Shown here: piece by piece, positions 1 through 6,016 of the stretch
Layout of the letters: every line of letters begins with the position of its first letter
How positions within the stretch are numbered: position 1 is the first letter of the stretch
DNA from: Perkinsus chesapeaki
Taxonomy: Eukaryota > Perkinsozoa > Perkinsida > Perkinsidae
Length of the DNA: 64,000 nucleotides
Assembly (NCBI GenBank): GCA_013115145.1
Contig: JAAPAO010000032.1
Coordinates: 9,570 to 73,569 of the forward strand
Direction of reading: 5' to 3'
Position numbers and translations under genes: made by a program
Notes under the pieces: model-generated
Told to the model about the DNA's origin: nothing
The model's database searches: none
What the model saw: the letters and a program-made list of their open reading frames with translations, nothing else

Positions 1-195
1 ATAGTAAAGAAGGATATAATAGTAAAGAAGGATATAATAGTAAAGAAGGATATAATAGTAAAGAAGGATATAATAGTAAAGAAGGATATAATAGTAAAGA
101 AGGATATAATAGTAAAGAAGGATATAATAGTAAAGAAGGATATAATAGTAAAGAAGGATATAACAATAAAGAAGGATATGACAATAAAGAAGGAT
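1..195. repeat. 18-bp coding minisatellite
   Basis: At least nine near-perfect copies of an 18-bp unit (AATAGTAAAGAAGGATAT) run from the left edge. The last copies, from about 160, change AGT to AAT or GAC. Because the unit is a multiple of three, the reading frame stays open and each copy encodes Asn-Ser-Lys-Glu-Gly-Tyr. The array probably continues beyond the window. Confidence 0.95.
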
Positions 196-311
196 ATAAT
201 AATAGTAATAAGTTGAATAGAATAGTTAAAGTTGGTAATGCAGTACGAAGAATGCAATTATTAGCTATGAAACAAAGGGGGCATGATGATAATGTACTTA
301 TTAATAATTAA
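3..311 (+). CDS. C-terminal part of a hexapeptide-repeat protein
   Basis: This is the 3' end of a gene whose start lies outside the window. The frame is open from the edge to TAA at 309-311. About 60 residues are S-K-E-G-Y-N repeats that drift to N-K-E-G-Y-D/N. They are followed by a short basic tail (KLNRIVKVGNAVRRMQ, then LLAMKQRGHDDN) with no repeats. The array is lysine/glutamate/tyrosine rich and hydrophilic, so it is probably an extended or disordered tail. No domain is visible and I do not recognise the family. The next gene starts about 100 bp downstream on the same strand. Confidence 0.6.
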   Translation, partial: SKEGYNSKEGYNSKEGYNSKEGYNSKEGYNSKEGYNSKEGYNSKEGYNSKEGYNNKEGYDNKEGYNNSNKLNRIVKVGNAVRRMQLLAMKQRGHDDNVLINN

Positions 312-412: not shown

Positions 413-3400
413 ATGTTAAATTGTGGTTGTAATGATAAAGATAATGTTGTAATGATAGATGTAGGTTTTCAAGGTGTTAATGGTGCATATAGCGAAAGCG
501 CTATGTAATACTAATAATAACAAGACCTCCTTTATTATAATAATAATGTTGCTATTTTTATTAGTTACGAATATTTATGTAATAATAATGGTGTATATTA
601 TCCAAATATTAATAAAGATAACATTAATGCTATTGGTTATGAAACATTTGAAGATGTATTTAAGTATGTAGTATCAAATAATATGTTAGGTATAATACCG
701 ATAGAGAATACTTTAGGAGGGACAATACATACTAATTATGGTAATAATAATACATAGTATACATTATTAATATACATTATTAATATACATTATTATTGCA
801 TTTCTTTTAATTGTTAGATTTATTATTACGTTATAGTGGTTCGGTATATATAATTGGTGAATTAGATTATCATGTTAAACATTGTTTATTAACGAAAAAT
901 AAAGATATTAATATAGATAATATTAAAGAAGCGTATTCCCATCCACAAGCATTAGCACAATGCTCTAAATATTTACGAGATAAAGGTATTAAACCAATGG
1001 TATATAATGATACTGCTGGAGCGGCTAAAATGATAGCATCATCCTCATCCTCGTCAAGGATTAATACTGATATTGCAGCTGCTATTAGTAGTAGTTTAGC
1101 TGGTGATATATATAATCTAAATATAGCTGATAATGATATACAAGATATATCATTTAATAGAACTAGGTAGTAATAGTACGTAGTTGTAGTAGTATGTTGC
1201 TGTTACTTATATACTAGTAGATATATATATTTCATACTCATTAGATTCTTATTAATATATTATAAACCTATTTTAAATAATATATCATCAATAATAAATA
1301 AAGCTAGTATTGTATTTACCATGGATGATGATACGTAATAATAATATATGATAATATTAATATAATTTATTATTAGTCCTGGAAGTTTACATAAATCATT
1401 ATCAGTATTTACATATAGGAATTTACAACTTACTAAATTAGAATCTAGACCATTACCAGTTGAAATGTTGGATGATATAACAAAGTAGTAATATTATCTG
1501 ATAATTATAATAAATAATATTATTAGTCTTGAAACTAGTAATAATGATGATAAGAAAGATAAAGGAAGTGGAAGTTATTATAATTATTTATGTTATATTG
1601 ATATATTAATAAATCTAGGGCAAGATGTAGCATTTACAAGAGCTATAGATACATTAAAAGAATATAATTCATTTGTTAGGGTAGTAGTAATAATAATAAT
1701 AATAATATATAGTGAACATATCATTATACATCATATACAAGTAGGTATTATCAATATATCCAGCATCAGCTAATAAACATCATCATCATCATATTGCTAA
1801 ACCCTATGCTATATTACAGTGGCCATTTGACATAGCCATAACATCATCATCATCACCATCCAGTTGTTGTTGTATTAATGATATTAATATATCATTCATA
1901 GGGTAGTATTATTATTAGTAGTATCATTGATAGTATCATCATTAATAGGTATGGTAAGTTTGCACAGTTTTTAAGTGATAGATTGGTTAAAATATGTGAT
2001 AAAAGAACATCGATAAGTGCAACTAATATAATGGATAATAATGATGATAATAATAATAGAATAAAACATGCAATTGAGAATGATATAAGGTACTACTAGT
2101 ATAACTACTACTTATAATACATATAATATAGTAGTATATAATTATTATTAACTATGTTTTTTGTTATTAGGTATTATAGTAATTTTAATATTAAAGATAT
2201 GTTATATAATGAAAAACCAGATATTATAGTGGTTGCTACATCAATATTATCATTTGGTGATGTTGTTAATAAATTGTCATATTATATTAAAGATTATATT
2301 AATTATACCAAAAAGGATATATTAATAACTGATGTATGTAGTGTTAAAAAATATCCATTAGATGTAGTAATTATTATTATGGTATAACGGTATTAATAAT
2401 AATATTAGGTTATGAAAGAAGCATTTATTAAAGTAAGTGAAGTGAACACCAACAACAACAACAAAAAGAATGATGATGATGTTGATGTTGTTGTTGATGA
2501 TGATGATTCTACTACTAATGGTATAAGTATATTATGTACACATCCTATGTTTGGTCCAGATAGTGGTAAATATGGATGGTATAATTTACCATTAGTTTAT
2601 GATGATACATATGTTGATACTACATCTGATAGAATTAATTATATAACTAAATATTGGCTTGATATGTTTAATAGTTGTGGATGTAGATTAATAAATATGA
2701 AAGCTGATGAACATGATAAATTATCAGCATCAACACAATTTATAACACATTTAACAGGAAGAATATTGAGTGGTATAAAACCAAAATTACATAAAACTGA
2801 TATAGATACTGTTGGATTTAGAAGCCTTATTAAATTAATGGATAATACTAATAATGATAGGTAGTAGTAGTAATAATATGATTAGGTCGATTATTATTAT
2901 GATAGTATTGAATTATTTAAAGGACTATACCGTTATAATACATCATCTGAATTACAGCTTGAAGCATTTGAAAATAGTTTAAAATATATTAAAGATATAC
3001 TTAATAAGAATGGACAAGATAATGTAATAATAATAATAACAGTTATAATGCAACATTACATTAGTATTAGGTCAATAACAACAACACTAATCAGCCTTCT
3101 CCCTCTACATCATCATCAGCCGATGCTACTGATGCTACTGATGCTGCTCAGTTATCTAAGTTAATTGATAGATTACCATCCAGTGCTACGGTTCGTCTAC
3201 ATGCGAAATCAATGGAATTAAAAAGGATTGGTAAAGATATACAAGGTGCTTTAGGTGTTGGTGAACCTGACTTTTTACCATCTAAATGTGTATTAATAAT
3301 AATAGTAACATATTATTATTATTAATAATAATAATTAGGTTATTGATGGAATAGAAGAATCATTAAGTAATGGATGGGGATGCAAATATTCCCCATCAAA

Positions 3401-4862
3401 TGGTATTTATGAACTGAGTAATAATAATAATTATAATACTAATAATTATTAATAATAATATAATAGGGAAAGCTATAGCCGATGATATGAATATAAGAAA
3501 AGGCTATAGTAAGGTCATAAATGCTGATAATGTTATTATAACAGCTAGTGGCAAATCAGCTATAGCTGGGACATTCATGGCAATACTCGATAAAAATGAT
3601 GAAGTAATAATAATAATATATTAATAATAATATTATTATTATTGTATATTATTAGATCATTATACCAACACCCTGTTGGCCGACATTCCCTGATTTGGCT
3701 TACATGTGTAAAGCTAAACCAATATTCATAGAAACAATATCACCTTATTATTATATAACAGCTAATATGATAGAATCCGTAATAACATCAAAAACTAAAG
3801 TTATATTATTAAATTCGCCATCAAATCCAACAGGACATGTTATACCTTTACAAGAGTAATAATAAGATTTAATAATATTTTAGTGATCATTATTTTTACA
3901 GATTAATGGCAATATCTAAAGTACTTGAAAAGTATCCTAATATTATTGCTGTATGTGATGACCTGTAATGTCTATTATTATTATTATTATTAACAACCTC
4001 TTTATTGTTGTATCTTCTTTCAGTTATGAAAGATTAGTTTATGATGGTAAACAACATCACACATTAGCAAGTATATGTGATAATAATGATGTTAATAGGA
4101 GAGTTATGTAATTATACTAATAATATTATATAACTTGATAATGATAATAATAATTATTATTGTTGTTGTTATTTAGAACTATTGGTGGATTTTCTAAAGG
4201 ATATGCTATGACTGGATTACGTTTGGGATATGCTATATGTAATGATATTACATTTATTAAAGCTATTGGTAAAGTACTTGGTCAAATAACAGGATGTGCA
4301 TGTATGTATTATTATTGTTATTATCATTATTATTACAAATACTTATTATTATGATTCATATAGGTACAGCATCACAAGCTGGTGGTTTAGCAGCTTTACA
4401 GAATGTACCAATAAAATGGTATGAAGAAAGATTAATGGAACTCCAAAATAAAAGAAATTTCATTTATAAACGTTTAAAAAATATACCAAATGTGATATGT
4501 CCACCAACACCACCTGAAGGAGCATTCTATATTATGCCTGATATTGGTTATTATGTTAATAAAATGAGAATTAATAGAAAAGATGAAACAATTGGAATAT
4601 CTGAATTATGTAAATGATGATAAATACAGATTATTAGTAATTGATGATATTATAATGTATGTTGTTAGGTGAGGAATTATTATCTTCTCAAGGATTATCT
4701 ATTGTACCCGGTACTGGATTTTACAGTCAACAACCAGTTGTTAGATTATCGTAATAGTAATTATATAAATGTTAATTATATATTAAATACAGGTACGCAA
4801 CATCCATCGAAAATATCGATGATGCCTGTAATAGGCTTGAAAAGTTTTTATCATCTCTATAA
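413..4862 (+). CDS. Trifunctional aromatic amino-acid enzyme: PDT-ACT + TyrA dehydrogenase + aminotransferase
   Basis: One continuous spliced frame joins three enzymes that turn prephenate into Phe and Tyr. (1) About 413-1700 is a prephenate/arogenate dehydratase: GVNGAYSES near the start, GIIPIENTLGG, the catalytic TRF triad (NRTRF) and an ACT domain with the ESRP motif that usually mediates Phe feedback. (2) About 1740-3010 is a TyrA-type dehydrogenase: a Rossmann start (FIGYGKFA), CTHPMFGPDSG with the catalytic His, and NNDSIELFKGL. (3) About 3080-4862 is a class I PLP aminotransferase: NSPSNPTG, DDLYERLVYDG, the PLP lysine in GGFSKGYAMTGLRLGY and the substrate Arg in VVRLSYA. Its N-terminus resembles the AspAT I-beta group, which contains prephenate aminotransferases. 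An Asn/Ser/Asp/Ala linker separates domains 2 and 3. The model has about 14 introns of 40-90 nt. The start is the first ATG before the dehydratase motif. Chorismate mutase is not part of the protein. Choice between arogenate and prephenate cannot be judged from sequence. Confidence 0.88.
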
Positions 4863-5089: not shown

Positions 5090-6016
5090 ATGGTAATTAC
5101 ATTTGAAATATGTTGTGGTGATATACATGAAGTTGGAGAGGCATGTAAGAAAGGAGCAGATAGAATTGAGTTATGTTCAGGAATAGAATATGATGGGTAT
5201 TATCAGATCAACTTATAATAATAATATCGTATTGTTATCAGATTAACACCTTCGACTGATATTATTACTGATAGTCTCAAACTCTGTCGTAAATATAACG
5301 TAAAACTTGCTGTTATGCTTCGATGCCGTGGTGGAGATTTTATTTATTCAAAGGAGGAAATGGAAGAAATGTTAAATACTTTAAAAGCTTGGAAAGACAA
5401 CGAAGATATTCATCTAGATGGTGTAGTTGTAAGTTGATTAATGTTTATTAATAATTATGATTGCTATTCAGTTTGGCGCTATATCTAAAGATCATCCATC
5501 AAGTCCGGATATTCATGCTTTATTAAAAATAGTTAATTGTGCATTCCCTTGGCCAGTCACGTTTCACAAAGCAATTGACTTTATGATTCCTGCAATAACA
5601 ACTGATACCACAGTAAACAATTAGAAAATTCATTATTAATATATTCTTATGTTAGTTGAGTATAACGGCCTGTAGAATTATCGACGAACTTGATAAATGT
5701 GGCGTACGTCGTATATTAACATCTGGACTTCATCTTACTGCTGATGAAGGAAAGGATGTAATATCATCAAGTTAAACGATGTTATAAATAATTTTATCAT
5801 ATGAATAGGTTATACGTGATATGGTGCAATATATATCAAAGAATAGTATTAATATTAGCATTATTATGGCAGGTGAGCCAATACATTGCTCATGAAATTA
5901 AAGTTAATGTTCTCTTACTAGGTGGTATCCGAGAATATAATGTCAAACGTTTGATTGATTATACGAATGTAACGGAAATACATTCAAGAAGTTGCTGTGT
6001 TCTTAATACTAAATAA
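5090..6016 (+). CDS. cutC: CutC-family copper homeostasis protein
   Basis: CutC proteins are TIM-barrel proteins linked to copper handling in bacteria and animals; the biochemical role is still debated. The spliced protein begins MVITFEICCGDIHEVGEACK and carries the family hallmarks in order: GADRIELCS, GGLTP-like YDGLTPS, MLRCRGGDFIYSKEE, DGVVFGAI, VTFHKAID, CGVRRILTSG, MAGGIREYN and a closing EIHSRS. Introns lie at about 5198-5242, 5429-5471, 5612-5665, 5759-5808 and 5871-5921; removing them leaves a full-length protein close to the usual CutC size. It is 227 bp downstream of the fusion enzyme on the same strand, with no evident functional link. The start ATG matches the start of homologous domains. 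Confidence 0.88.

What the first reader, a model, noticed from the sequence alone, without database searches (positions are those of the whole stretch)
413..4862. Three-enzyme fusion covering the post-prephenate steps to Phe and Tyr
Dehydratase-ACT, TyrA dehydrogenase and an I-beta-like aminotransferase read as one spliced frame with linkers and no internal start or stop. Together they could perform transamination of prephenate and both branch reactions on one chain, with the ACT domain as a built-in Phe sensor. Chorismate mutase is missing. I am not aware of a characterised enzyme with this exact set and order, although partial fusions of these domains are known.
Basis: partly seen in the sequence, partly recalled or inferred. 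Interest (0 to 1): 0.8.

Follow-up and report, generated by a model that had tools for sequence, protein, structure and literature searches.

The report
Three-enzyme fusion making Phe and Tyr
One spliced gene of a Perkinsus-like protist encodes a single protein that joins the three enzymes needed to turn prephenate into phenylalanine and tyrosine; the same chain turns up in many other microbial eukaryotes, apparently undescribed, so it is real and old rather than unique to this genome.

Summary
Confirmed. Window 413-4862 splices into one open frame: 21 exons, 20 GT-AG introns, 1,111 residues, with prephenate/arogenate dehydratase, ACT, TyrA dehydrogenase and a class I-beta-type aminotransferase in that order. 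One exon (1745-1902) holds both the end of ACT and the start of TyrA, and exon 12 offers the aminotransferase no start codon ahead of its conserved start, so separate genes are very unlikely. It is not one of a kind: 48 of the 66 best database relatives (of 129 hits) cover all four domains in the same order, including oomycete, thraustochytrid, chromerid, dinoflagellate, haptophyte and amoebozoan records. The domains have largely congruent histories, so this looks like an old fusion inherited as a unit. The TyrA specificity residue is Asp637 (acidic, the arogenate type), also Asp in 47 of the 48. A modelled relative's aminotransferase is closest to Arabidopsis prephenate aminotransferase. Best reading: prephenate to arogenate, then to Phe and Tyr, on one probably cytosolic chain. 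Against: a recalled position-12 determinant is not met (Pro713). Chorismate mutase is a separate gene. Eight literature searches aimed at this fusion found no description.

The parts
413..4862 (+). whole fusion gene, start codon to stop codon; 21 exons: 413-504, 565-740, 818-1166, 1245-1334, 1377-1484, 1527-1680, 1745-1902, 1949-2089, 2171-2363, 2409-2860, 2906-3023, 3071-3289, 3339-3417, 3467-3603, 3656-3855, 3902-3964, 4024-4107, 4177-4301, 4364-4609, 4669-4750, 4793-4862
   Evidence: splice model, no internal stop; upstream in-frame stop at 374
461..1263 (+). dehydratase domain (PDT/ADT), residues 17-212, exons 1-4, TRF motif at residues 205-207
   Evidence: PF00800, 6.4e-46; T, R, F in 48 of 48 four-domain relatives
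1303..1765 (+). ACT domain, about residues 226-330, ESRP motif with Glu258 at 1441-1443
   Evidence: no Pfam ACT hit
1766..1879 (+). linker ACT to TyrA, about residues 331-368, inside exon 7 (no intron, no stop)
   Evidence: a relative's model is least confident in the corresponding region (residues 349-360 of P0005)
1880..3008 (+). TyrA dehydrogenase domain, about residues 369-672; His532 and His601 of conserved motifs; Asp637 (2856-2858) at the 222-equivalent specificity position
3009..3151 (+). linker TyrA to aminotransferase, about residues 673-704, interrupted by intron 11 (3024-3070); no in-frame ATG in exon 12 before Met725
3152..4850 (+). class I-beta-type aminotransferase domain, residues 705-1108; Pro713 (3176-3178), Thr717 (3188-3190), Lys806 (3553-3555), PLP lysine Lys945 (4196-4198), Arg1087

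Best explanation
This is the single post-prephenate enzyme of a Perkinsus-like protist. A separate chorismate mutase makes prephenate. The C-terminal aminotransferase converts prephenate to arogenate with an amino donor such as glutamate or aspartate; the N-terminal dehydratase converts arogenate to Phe and the TyrA domain oxidises arogenate to Tyr; the ACT domain binds Phe and throttles the dehydratase branch. Shown here: one open frame by homology-guided splicing, the domain set, its conservation as a unit in relatives, an acidic arogenate-type residue in TyrA, PDT and TyrA matches at this locus only in the assembly. Inferred: substrates, Phe feedback, a cytosolic place (no room for a targeting peptide), and benefit from keeping the three active sites together; true channelling is not shown.
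For: Splice model and domains. 48 of 66 aligned relatives cover all four domains in order (each at least half covered), one of them an MMETSP transcript labelled complete (P0005). Domain distance matrices correlate at r 0.88, 0.86 and 0.83 over 43 sequences; of splits with support of at least 0.9, 1 of 21, 2 of 21 and 2 of 18 conflict with the other tree. Asp at the TyrA 222-equivalent in the window and in 47 of 48; acidic there goes with arogenate specificity in tested clade I enzymes (PMC5681985, passages). Thr717 and Lys806, equivalents of Arabidopsis PPA-AT Thr84 and Lys169 (mutants named in PDB titles), are kept in 48 and 47 of 48. Top eight fold matches of the relative P0005: Arabidopsis prephenate aminotransferase, TM 0.95-0.96 by target length, 40-41% identity. 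Own genome: PDT and TyrA matches only at this locus; chorismate synthase and chorismate mutase elsewhere.
Against: Position 12 of the aminotransferase (recalled rule: Lys/Arg/Gln in prephenate-competent enzymes) is Pro713; among the 48 only 10 have K (7) or Q (3) and none R. No assay, no transcript of this organism. With all splits counted regardless of support, 15-18 of 40 conflict between domain trees. pTM 0.47 with two low-confidence linkers gives no fixed domain arrangement. The fold match was made on a relative, not on the window protein, and the 50 rows shown are all aminotransferase-type chains, so it says nothing on the other two enzymes. Exon-wise searches of the own genome can miss divergent copies: PF02153 did not even find this locus. 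An aromatic hydroxylase gene could supply Tyr from Phe without TyrA.
Confidence: 0.68

Rival explanations
1. Same single-chain enzyme but with the aminotransferase last: the dehydratase makes phenylpyruvate and TyrA makes 4-hydroxyphenylpyruvate from prephenate, and the one aminotransferase finishes both branches.
For: Aminotransferase position 12 is Pro, which by a recalled rule argues against prephenate as its substrate; some related aminotransferases act on aromatic amino acids (e.g. PDB 1dju, 4my5 by title).
Against: Asp at the TyrA 222-equivalent in the window and 47 of 48 relatives fits arogenate, not prephenate (PMC5681985, passages). Thr84 and Lys169 equivalents kept.
Confidence: 0.22
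2. Two or three neighbouring genes whose exons were joined by mistake.
For: No cDNA of this organism. Perkinsus database models P0001 and P0002 cover only 0.49 and 0.38 of TyrA.
Against: Exon 7 holds both the last ACT strand and the first TyrA strand in one open frame; exon 12 has no in-frame ATG before Met725, which lies behind the conserved start of the aminotransferase; the TyrA-aminotransferase gap is a 47-nt intron. 48 of 66 relatives are fused in the same order.
Confidence: 0.03
3. A fused but partly dead enzyme: one domain kept only as scaffold or regulator.
For: Low GC and Asn/Asp/Ser-rich inserts in TyrA and linkers suggest drift in this copy.
Against: Marks kept in the window: TRF, both TyrA His, PLP lysine, Arg1087. 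In Aphanomyces, TyrA is missing altogether rather than kept as a remnant.
Confidence: 0.07

Closest known systems
Database proteins of the same architecture, e.g. Phytophthora infestans P0039 ('aspartate aminotransferase, putative'), Hondaea P0012 ('Aminotransferase'), Chromera velia P0011 ('Prephenate dehydratase domain-containing protein'), Prorocentrum P0019, Emiliania huxleyi P0043, Arcella P0037
   Same: Same four domains, same order, mostly aligned over 97-99% of the query at about 30-35% identity.
   Different: Longer low-complexity inserts here; the source names seen mention at most one activity, except one JGI name (P0036) that lists all three.
PDT-ACT-TyrA two-enzyme fusion (P0056-P0065; P0064 carries taxid 515487, the diatom Stephanopyxis turris)
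   Same: Same first three domains.
   Different: No aminotransferase; the ten form their own clade (support 0.999); 7 of 10 have N-terminal extensions of 39-114 residues.
Archaeoglobus fulgidus TyrA-AroQ-PheA-ACT fusion (PMC1173090, passages)
   Same: Unites the Phe and Tyr branches and ACT on one chain.
   Different: Other order, has chorismate mutase, no aminotransferase.
HisHb-TyrA fusion (PMC1173090, passages)
   Same: Aminotransferase joined to TyrA.
   Different: Other aminotransferase (HisHb); no dehydratase is mentioned in the passage.
Plant arogenate route: PPA-AT, ADT and TyrAa as separate enzymes, mainly in plastids (PMC6635470, passages)
   Same: Same three reactions proposed; acidic 222 residue; a relative's aminotransferase fold is nearest Arabidopsis PPA-AT.
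   Different: Separate plastid proteins in plants; one chain without room for a targeting peptide here.

Membership tests
PDT-ACT-TyrA-aminotransferase fusion | four domains, this order, one frame | tested here: met
Prephenate/arogenate dehydratase (PF00800) | family score over curated cut-off and TRF motif | tested here: met
   156.9 bits against 25.2; T205 R206 F207
ACT regulatory domain of PheA type | ESRP and GALV-like motifs; ACT profile match | tested here: inconclusive
   ESRP at 258-261 and GSLH at 238-241 (motif names recalled); no Pfam ACT hit
TyrA (PF02153) | family score over curated cut-off | tested here: not met
   23.6 bits against 26.5; but 2.2e-33 to PDB 5t95, Prephenate dehydrogenase 1, over 527-671
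[quoted passage not shown]
   Asp637 aligns with chain position 222, Asp in 5t95 and 5t9f, Asn in 5t9e
Arogenate-type TyrA (clade I) | place in the clade I tree; activity on arogenate | not tested
   no TyrA tree with reference enzymes was built; activity needs an assay
Prephenate aminotransferase (I-beta) | Thr84 and Lys169 (Arabidopsis numbering) | tested here: met
   Thr717 and Lys806 align with Thr16 and Lys101 of 6f77, and both Arabidopsis numbers are 68 higher (mutants named; their role is recalled)
Prephenate aminotransferase (I-beta) | Lys/Arg/Gln at position 12 (Thermus numbering, recalled) | tested here: not met
   Pro713, aligned with Lys12 of 6f77 and Gly22 of 6f35
Prephenate aminotransferase (I-beta) | activity on prephenate | not testable with these tools
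   needs an assay

The most novel reading that the evidence does not exclude
A previously undescribed, ancient eukaryotic enzyme family, shared by alveolates, stramenopiles, haptophytes and at least one amoebozoan record, carries the whole arogenate route from prephenate to both Phe and Tyr on one cytosolic chain. The arogenate route would then be widespread in eukaryotes outside plants and plastids, and the single aminotransferase would set the flux into both branches.
Probability: 0.5. Interest if true: 0.68.

Novelty: new variant of a known kind. Interest (0 to 1): 0.5.

Why it matters
Whether eukaryotes other than plants make Phe and Tyr through arogenate is, to my knowledge, poorly mapped. 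A conserved chain with all three enzymes gives one protein to assay instead of three to identify, explains database entries labelled only 'aspartate aminotransferase', and would give a shared character for tracing the aromatic pathway across alveolates, stramenopiles and haptophytes. For this genome it suggests, with the chorismate synthase and chorismate mutase genes found, that the organism makes its own Phe and Tyr (the earlier shikimate steps were not searched).

Tried and rejected
Chorismate mutase by PF01817: no match; the plant/yeast profile TIGR01802 found five exon-like matches in a row on C79, best 1.3e-10, none over the family cut-off alone, so the first negative was a matter of the model. 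PF02153 on the own genome found nothing, not even this locus, so it says nothing about copy number; a protein search was used instead. Intron 10 with acceptor 2885 was rejected (wrong frame, then stops; read by eye). A mixed assembly was considered because the window is AT-rich while the 25 loci fetched from other contigs are at 0.415-0.516 GC; GC rises unevenly along the same contig to 0.47, so a compositional gradient fits better, though a mixed origin is not excluded. Literature: ten searches, eight aimed at the fusion and two at aminotransferase residues; I looked at titles, abstract starts and the passages of eleven papers. The passages shown from PMC2705460, PMC11439500, PMC6635470, PMC3901274, PMC5592239, PMC6668581, PMC4501334, PMC12142466 and PMC9309667 do not mention it; PMC5592239 lists a Phytophthora ramorum 'Prephenate dehydratase family' gene that may be the same gene (not checked). 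Dornfeld 2014 and Richards 2006 are not held; Giustini 2019 is recalled only. A domain-level search for non-fused aminotransferase or TyrA relatives was not run (1 of 3 protein searches used).

Full report
What is there. The window begins 9.6 kb into contig C246 of a 35.4 Mb, 884-contig assembly. The sequence at 413-4862 is broken by short AT-rich stretches that each begin GTA and end AG. Removing 20 of them gives 3,336 nt coding for 1,111 residues without an internal stop. Coding GC is 0.28 (third positions 0.13), intron GC 0.16. An in-frame stop lies upstream at 374 and the next ATG in frame is 413, so the protein most likely starts there, 16 residues before the dehydratase domain.

Domains. 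Pfam puts PDT at 17-212 and Aminotran_1_2 at 738-1104, both over cut-off; PDH_N is seen at 4.1e-05 below its cut-off. None of the 25 NCBIfam rows shown reaches its curated cut-off, the best being archaeal aspartate aminotransferase at 1.2e-81. The comparison with PDB sequences matches residues 705-1109 with bacterial aspartate aminotransferases and with the plant bifunctional aspartate/prephenate aminotransferase 5wmh, residues 527-671 with 'Prephenate dehydrogenase 1' (5t95; soybean, recalled), and residues 56-262 with prephenate dehydratase 2qmx. ACT was not named by Pfam; the ESRP motif (258-261) and the reach of dehydratase profile and chains to 262-277 support it.

Why it is one gene. Exon 7 (1745-1902) reads VLSIYPASANK...ISFI without a stop, so the last ACT strand and the first TyrA strand lie in one exon. 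Exon 12 reads through the second linker into the aminotransferase; its first in-frame Met is residue 725, behind the conserved SATV start motif. The gap between TyrA and aminotransferase exons is a 47-nt intron.

It is widespread. The protein search listed 120 of 129 hits, after scoring 7,983 candidates. I aligned the first 66 of the 120; the rest match by one or two domains and were left out. Counting a domain as present when at least half covered, 48 of 66 have all four, 10 lack the aminotransferase, 6 lack most or all of TyrA (the Perkinsus marinus and P. olseni models and four Aphanomyces proteins), 2 lack the dehydratase. Names given by the sources to four-domain proteins include Phytophthora, Albugo, Bremia, Hondaea, Chromera, Prorocentrum, Emiliania and Arcella; most of the 48 have no name, and the single Arcella record could be contamination. 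P0005 carries an MMETSP label 'type:complete', that is a transcript. The Perkinsus models cover 0.49 and 0.38 of TyrA; bad gene models are likely but I had no DNA to check.

History. With 43 sequences (window plus 42; P0003, P0019, P0037, P0043, P0045 and P0066 of the 48 were left out as duplicated, partial or divergent) the pairwise distances of PDT-ACT, TyrA and aminotransferase correlate at 0.88, 0.86 and 0.83. Of splits with support of 0.9 or more, 1 of 21, 2 of 21 and 2 of 18 conflict with the other tree; of all splits, 15-18 of 40 do. In a tree of 50 sequences (window and P0001-P0049) the window joins the two Perkinsus proteins (1.00), and these lie with Prorocentrum, four unnamed proteins and Chromera in one clade (0.99); the perkinsid-dinoflagellate node itself has 0.17 and the next deeper node 0.41. 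Supports are FastTree local values. The ten proteins without aminotransferase form one clade (0.999), and Aphanomyces, without TyrA, lies inside the oomycetes (1.0). So the fusion appears older than the myzozoans, is inherited as a unit, and has lost a part at least once; transfer between lineages is not excluded. Closeness to Perkinsus (60 and 66% identity over 41 and 32% of the query) makes the source a perkinsid-like protist; the species was not determined.

How it probably works. The TyrA residue aligned with position 222 of the PDB dehydrogenase is Asp637; the PDB set has Asn there in 5t9e and Asp in 5t9f and 5t95. In tested clade I enzymes an acid here goes with arogenate specificity, and changing it shifts activity towards prephenate (PMC5681985, passages). 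47 of the 48 four-domain relatives have Asp; the other, the Emiliania model P0043, has Pro in a stretch that looks damaged. Thr717 and Lys806 match Thr84 and Lys169 of Arabidopsis PPA-AT, positions mutated in PDB entries 5wmi and 5wmk (titles; their effect is recalled from Dornfeld 2014). A model of the relative P0005 from 46 sequences has mean pLDDT 89 and pTM 0.47, lowest at 349-360 and 625-636, the two linkers; its top eight PDB matches are Arabidopsis prephenate aminotransferase, followed by the Rhizobium prephenate aminotransferase 6f77; the 50 rows shown hold no dehydratase or dehydrogenase. Against the arogenate order, the N-terminal loop residue that I recall as a determinant of prephenate activity (position 12, Lys/Arg/Gln) is Pro713, and only 10 of 48 relatives have K or Q there. 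The Rhizobium enzyme titled aspartate aminotransferase, 6f35, has Gly at that place and Ile at the Thr84 place, while 6f77 has Lys and Thr (alignments); the window enzyme has Pro and Thr, so it meets one mark of two. I therefore give the arogenate order about two chances in three.

Pathway context. PDT matches in the own genome lie only here, TyrA likewise. Chorismate synthase is on C201, a plant/yeast-type chorismate mutase on C79 as a row of exon-like matches, and a biopterin-dependent aromatic hydroxylase on C462, which could give a second way to Tyr. Other class I/II aminotransferases exist: 8 further matches on 6 other contigs, with 9 of 22 candidates scored. Of the 48 four-domain relatives, 46 have at most 25 residues before the dehydratase (P0037 and P0045 among them are cut at their start), so a cytosolic place is likely, also in the algae among them.

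Novelty. Fused enzymes of this pathway are a known kind: chorismate mutase with TyrA, HisHb with TyrA, and the Archaeoglobus TyrA-AroQ-PheA-ACT chain (PMC1173090, passages), and chorismate mutase with dehydratase (recalled). The present set exists in databases, mostly unnamed or under the name of one activity; eight full-text searches aimed at it found no description (listed in Tried and rejected). The library holds open-licence papers only, so a description elsewhere is possible.

Corrected: number of contigs with other aminotransferases (6, not 7), the split counts, the origin of names that were recalled, the number of literature searches aimed at the fusion, and the NCBIfam cut-offs, which I had left out.

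Noticed in passing
window 1-64000 and contig C246 to its right end: GC rises unevenly along the contig from 0.25 at the window's left end to about 0.40 at 48-60 kb, drops to 0.35 and reaches 0.47 at the contig's right end, while the 25 loci fetched from other contigs are at 0.415-0.516. An AT-rich chromosome domain (end or centromere) in a GC-balanced genome would fit.
   Followed up: partly
window 1-201 (open frame 3-311): Tandem array of an 18-base unit, 11.2 copies at 97%, read as repeated SKEGYN; the sequence to its left reads N (withheld).
   Followed up: no
window 5091-6015: Next gene downstream, same strand, is a spliced CutC family gene (two exon pieces over the Pfam cut-off); its full exon set was not worked out.
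   Followed up: partly
P0051, P0053, P0054, P0055 (Aphanomyces): Dehydratase-ACT-aminotransferase without TyrA, nested within oomycetes: TyrA seems lost from the fusion, so Tyr must come another way or from another gene.
   Followed up: partly
P0056-P0065: In the two-enzyme fusion clade without aminotransferase, 7 of 10 have N-terminal extensions of 39-114 residues, possibly plastid targeting, in contrast to the three-enzyme chain. P0064 (Stephanopyxis turris by taxid) has Ser in place of the His of the HPMFGP motif.
   Followed up: no
P0067-P0073: Seven proteins of 781-788 aa (P0067 named from a Zixiibacteriota bacterium) whose match, an aminotransferase, covers 34-37% of the query; what the rest of each protein is was not examined.
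   Followed up: no
P0001, P0002 (Perkinsus marinus, P. olseni): Database models of the orthologue skip parts of TyrA (coverage 0.49 and 0.38), probably annotation faults.
   Followed up: no
contig C462, 6360-8935: Biopterin-dependent aromatic hydroxylase gene, seven exon-like matches: a possible second route to Tyr in this organism.
   Followed up: no
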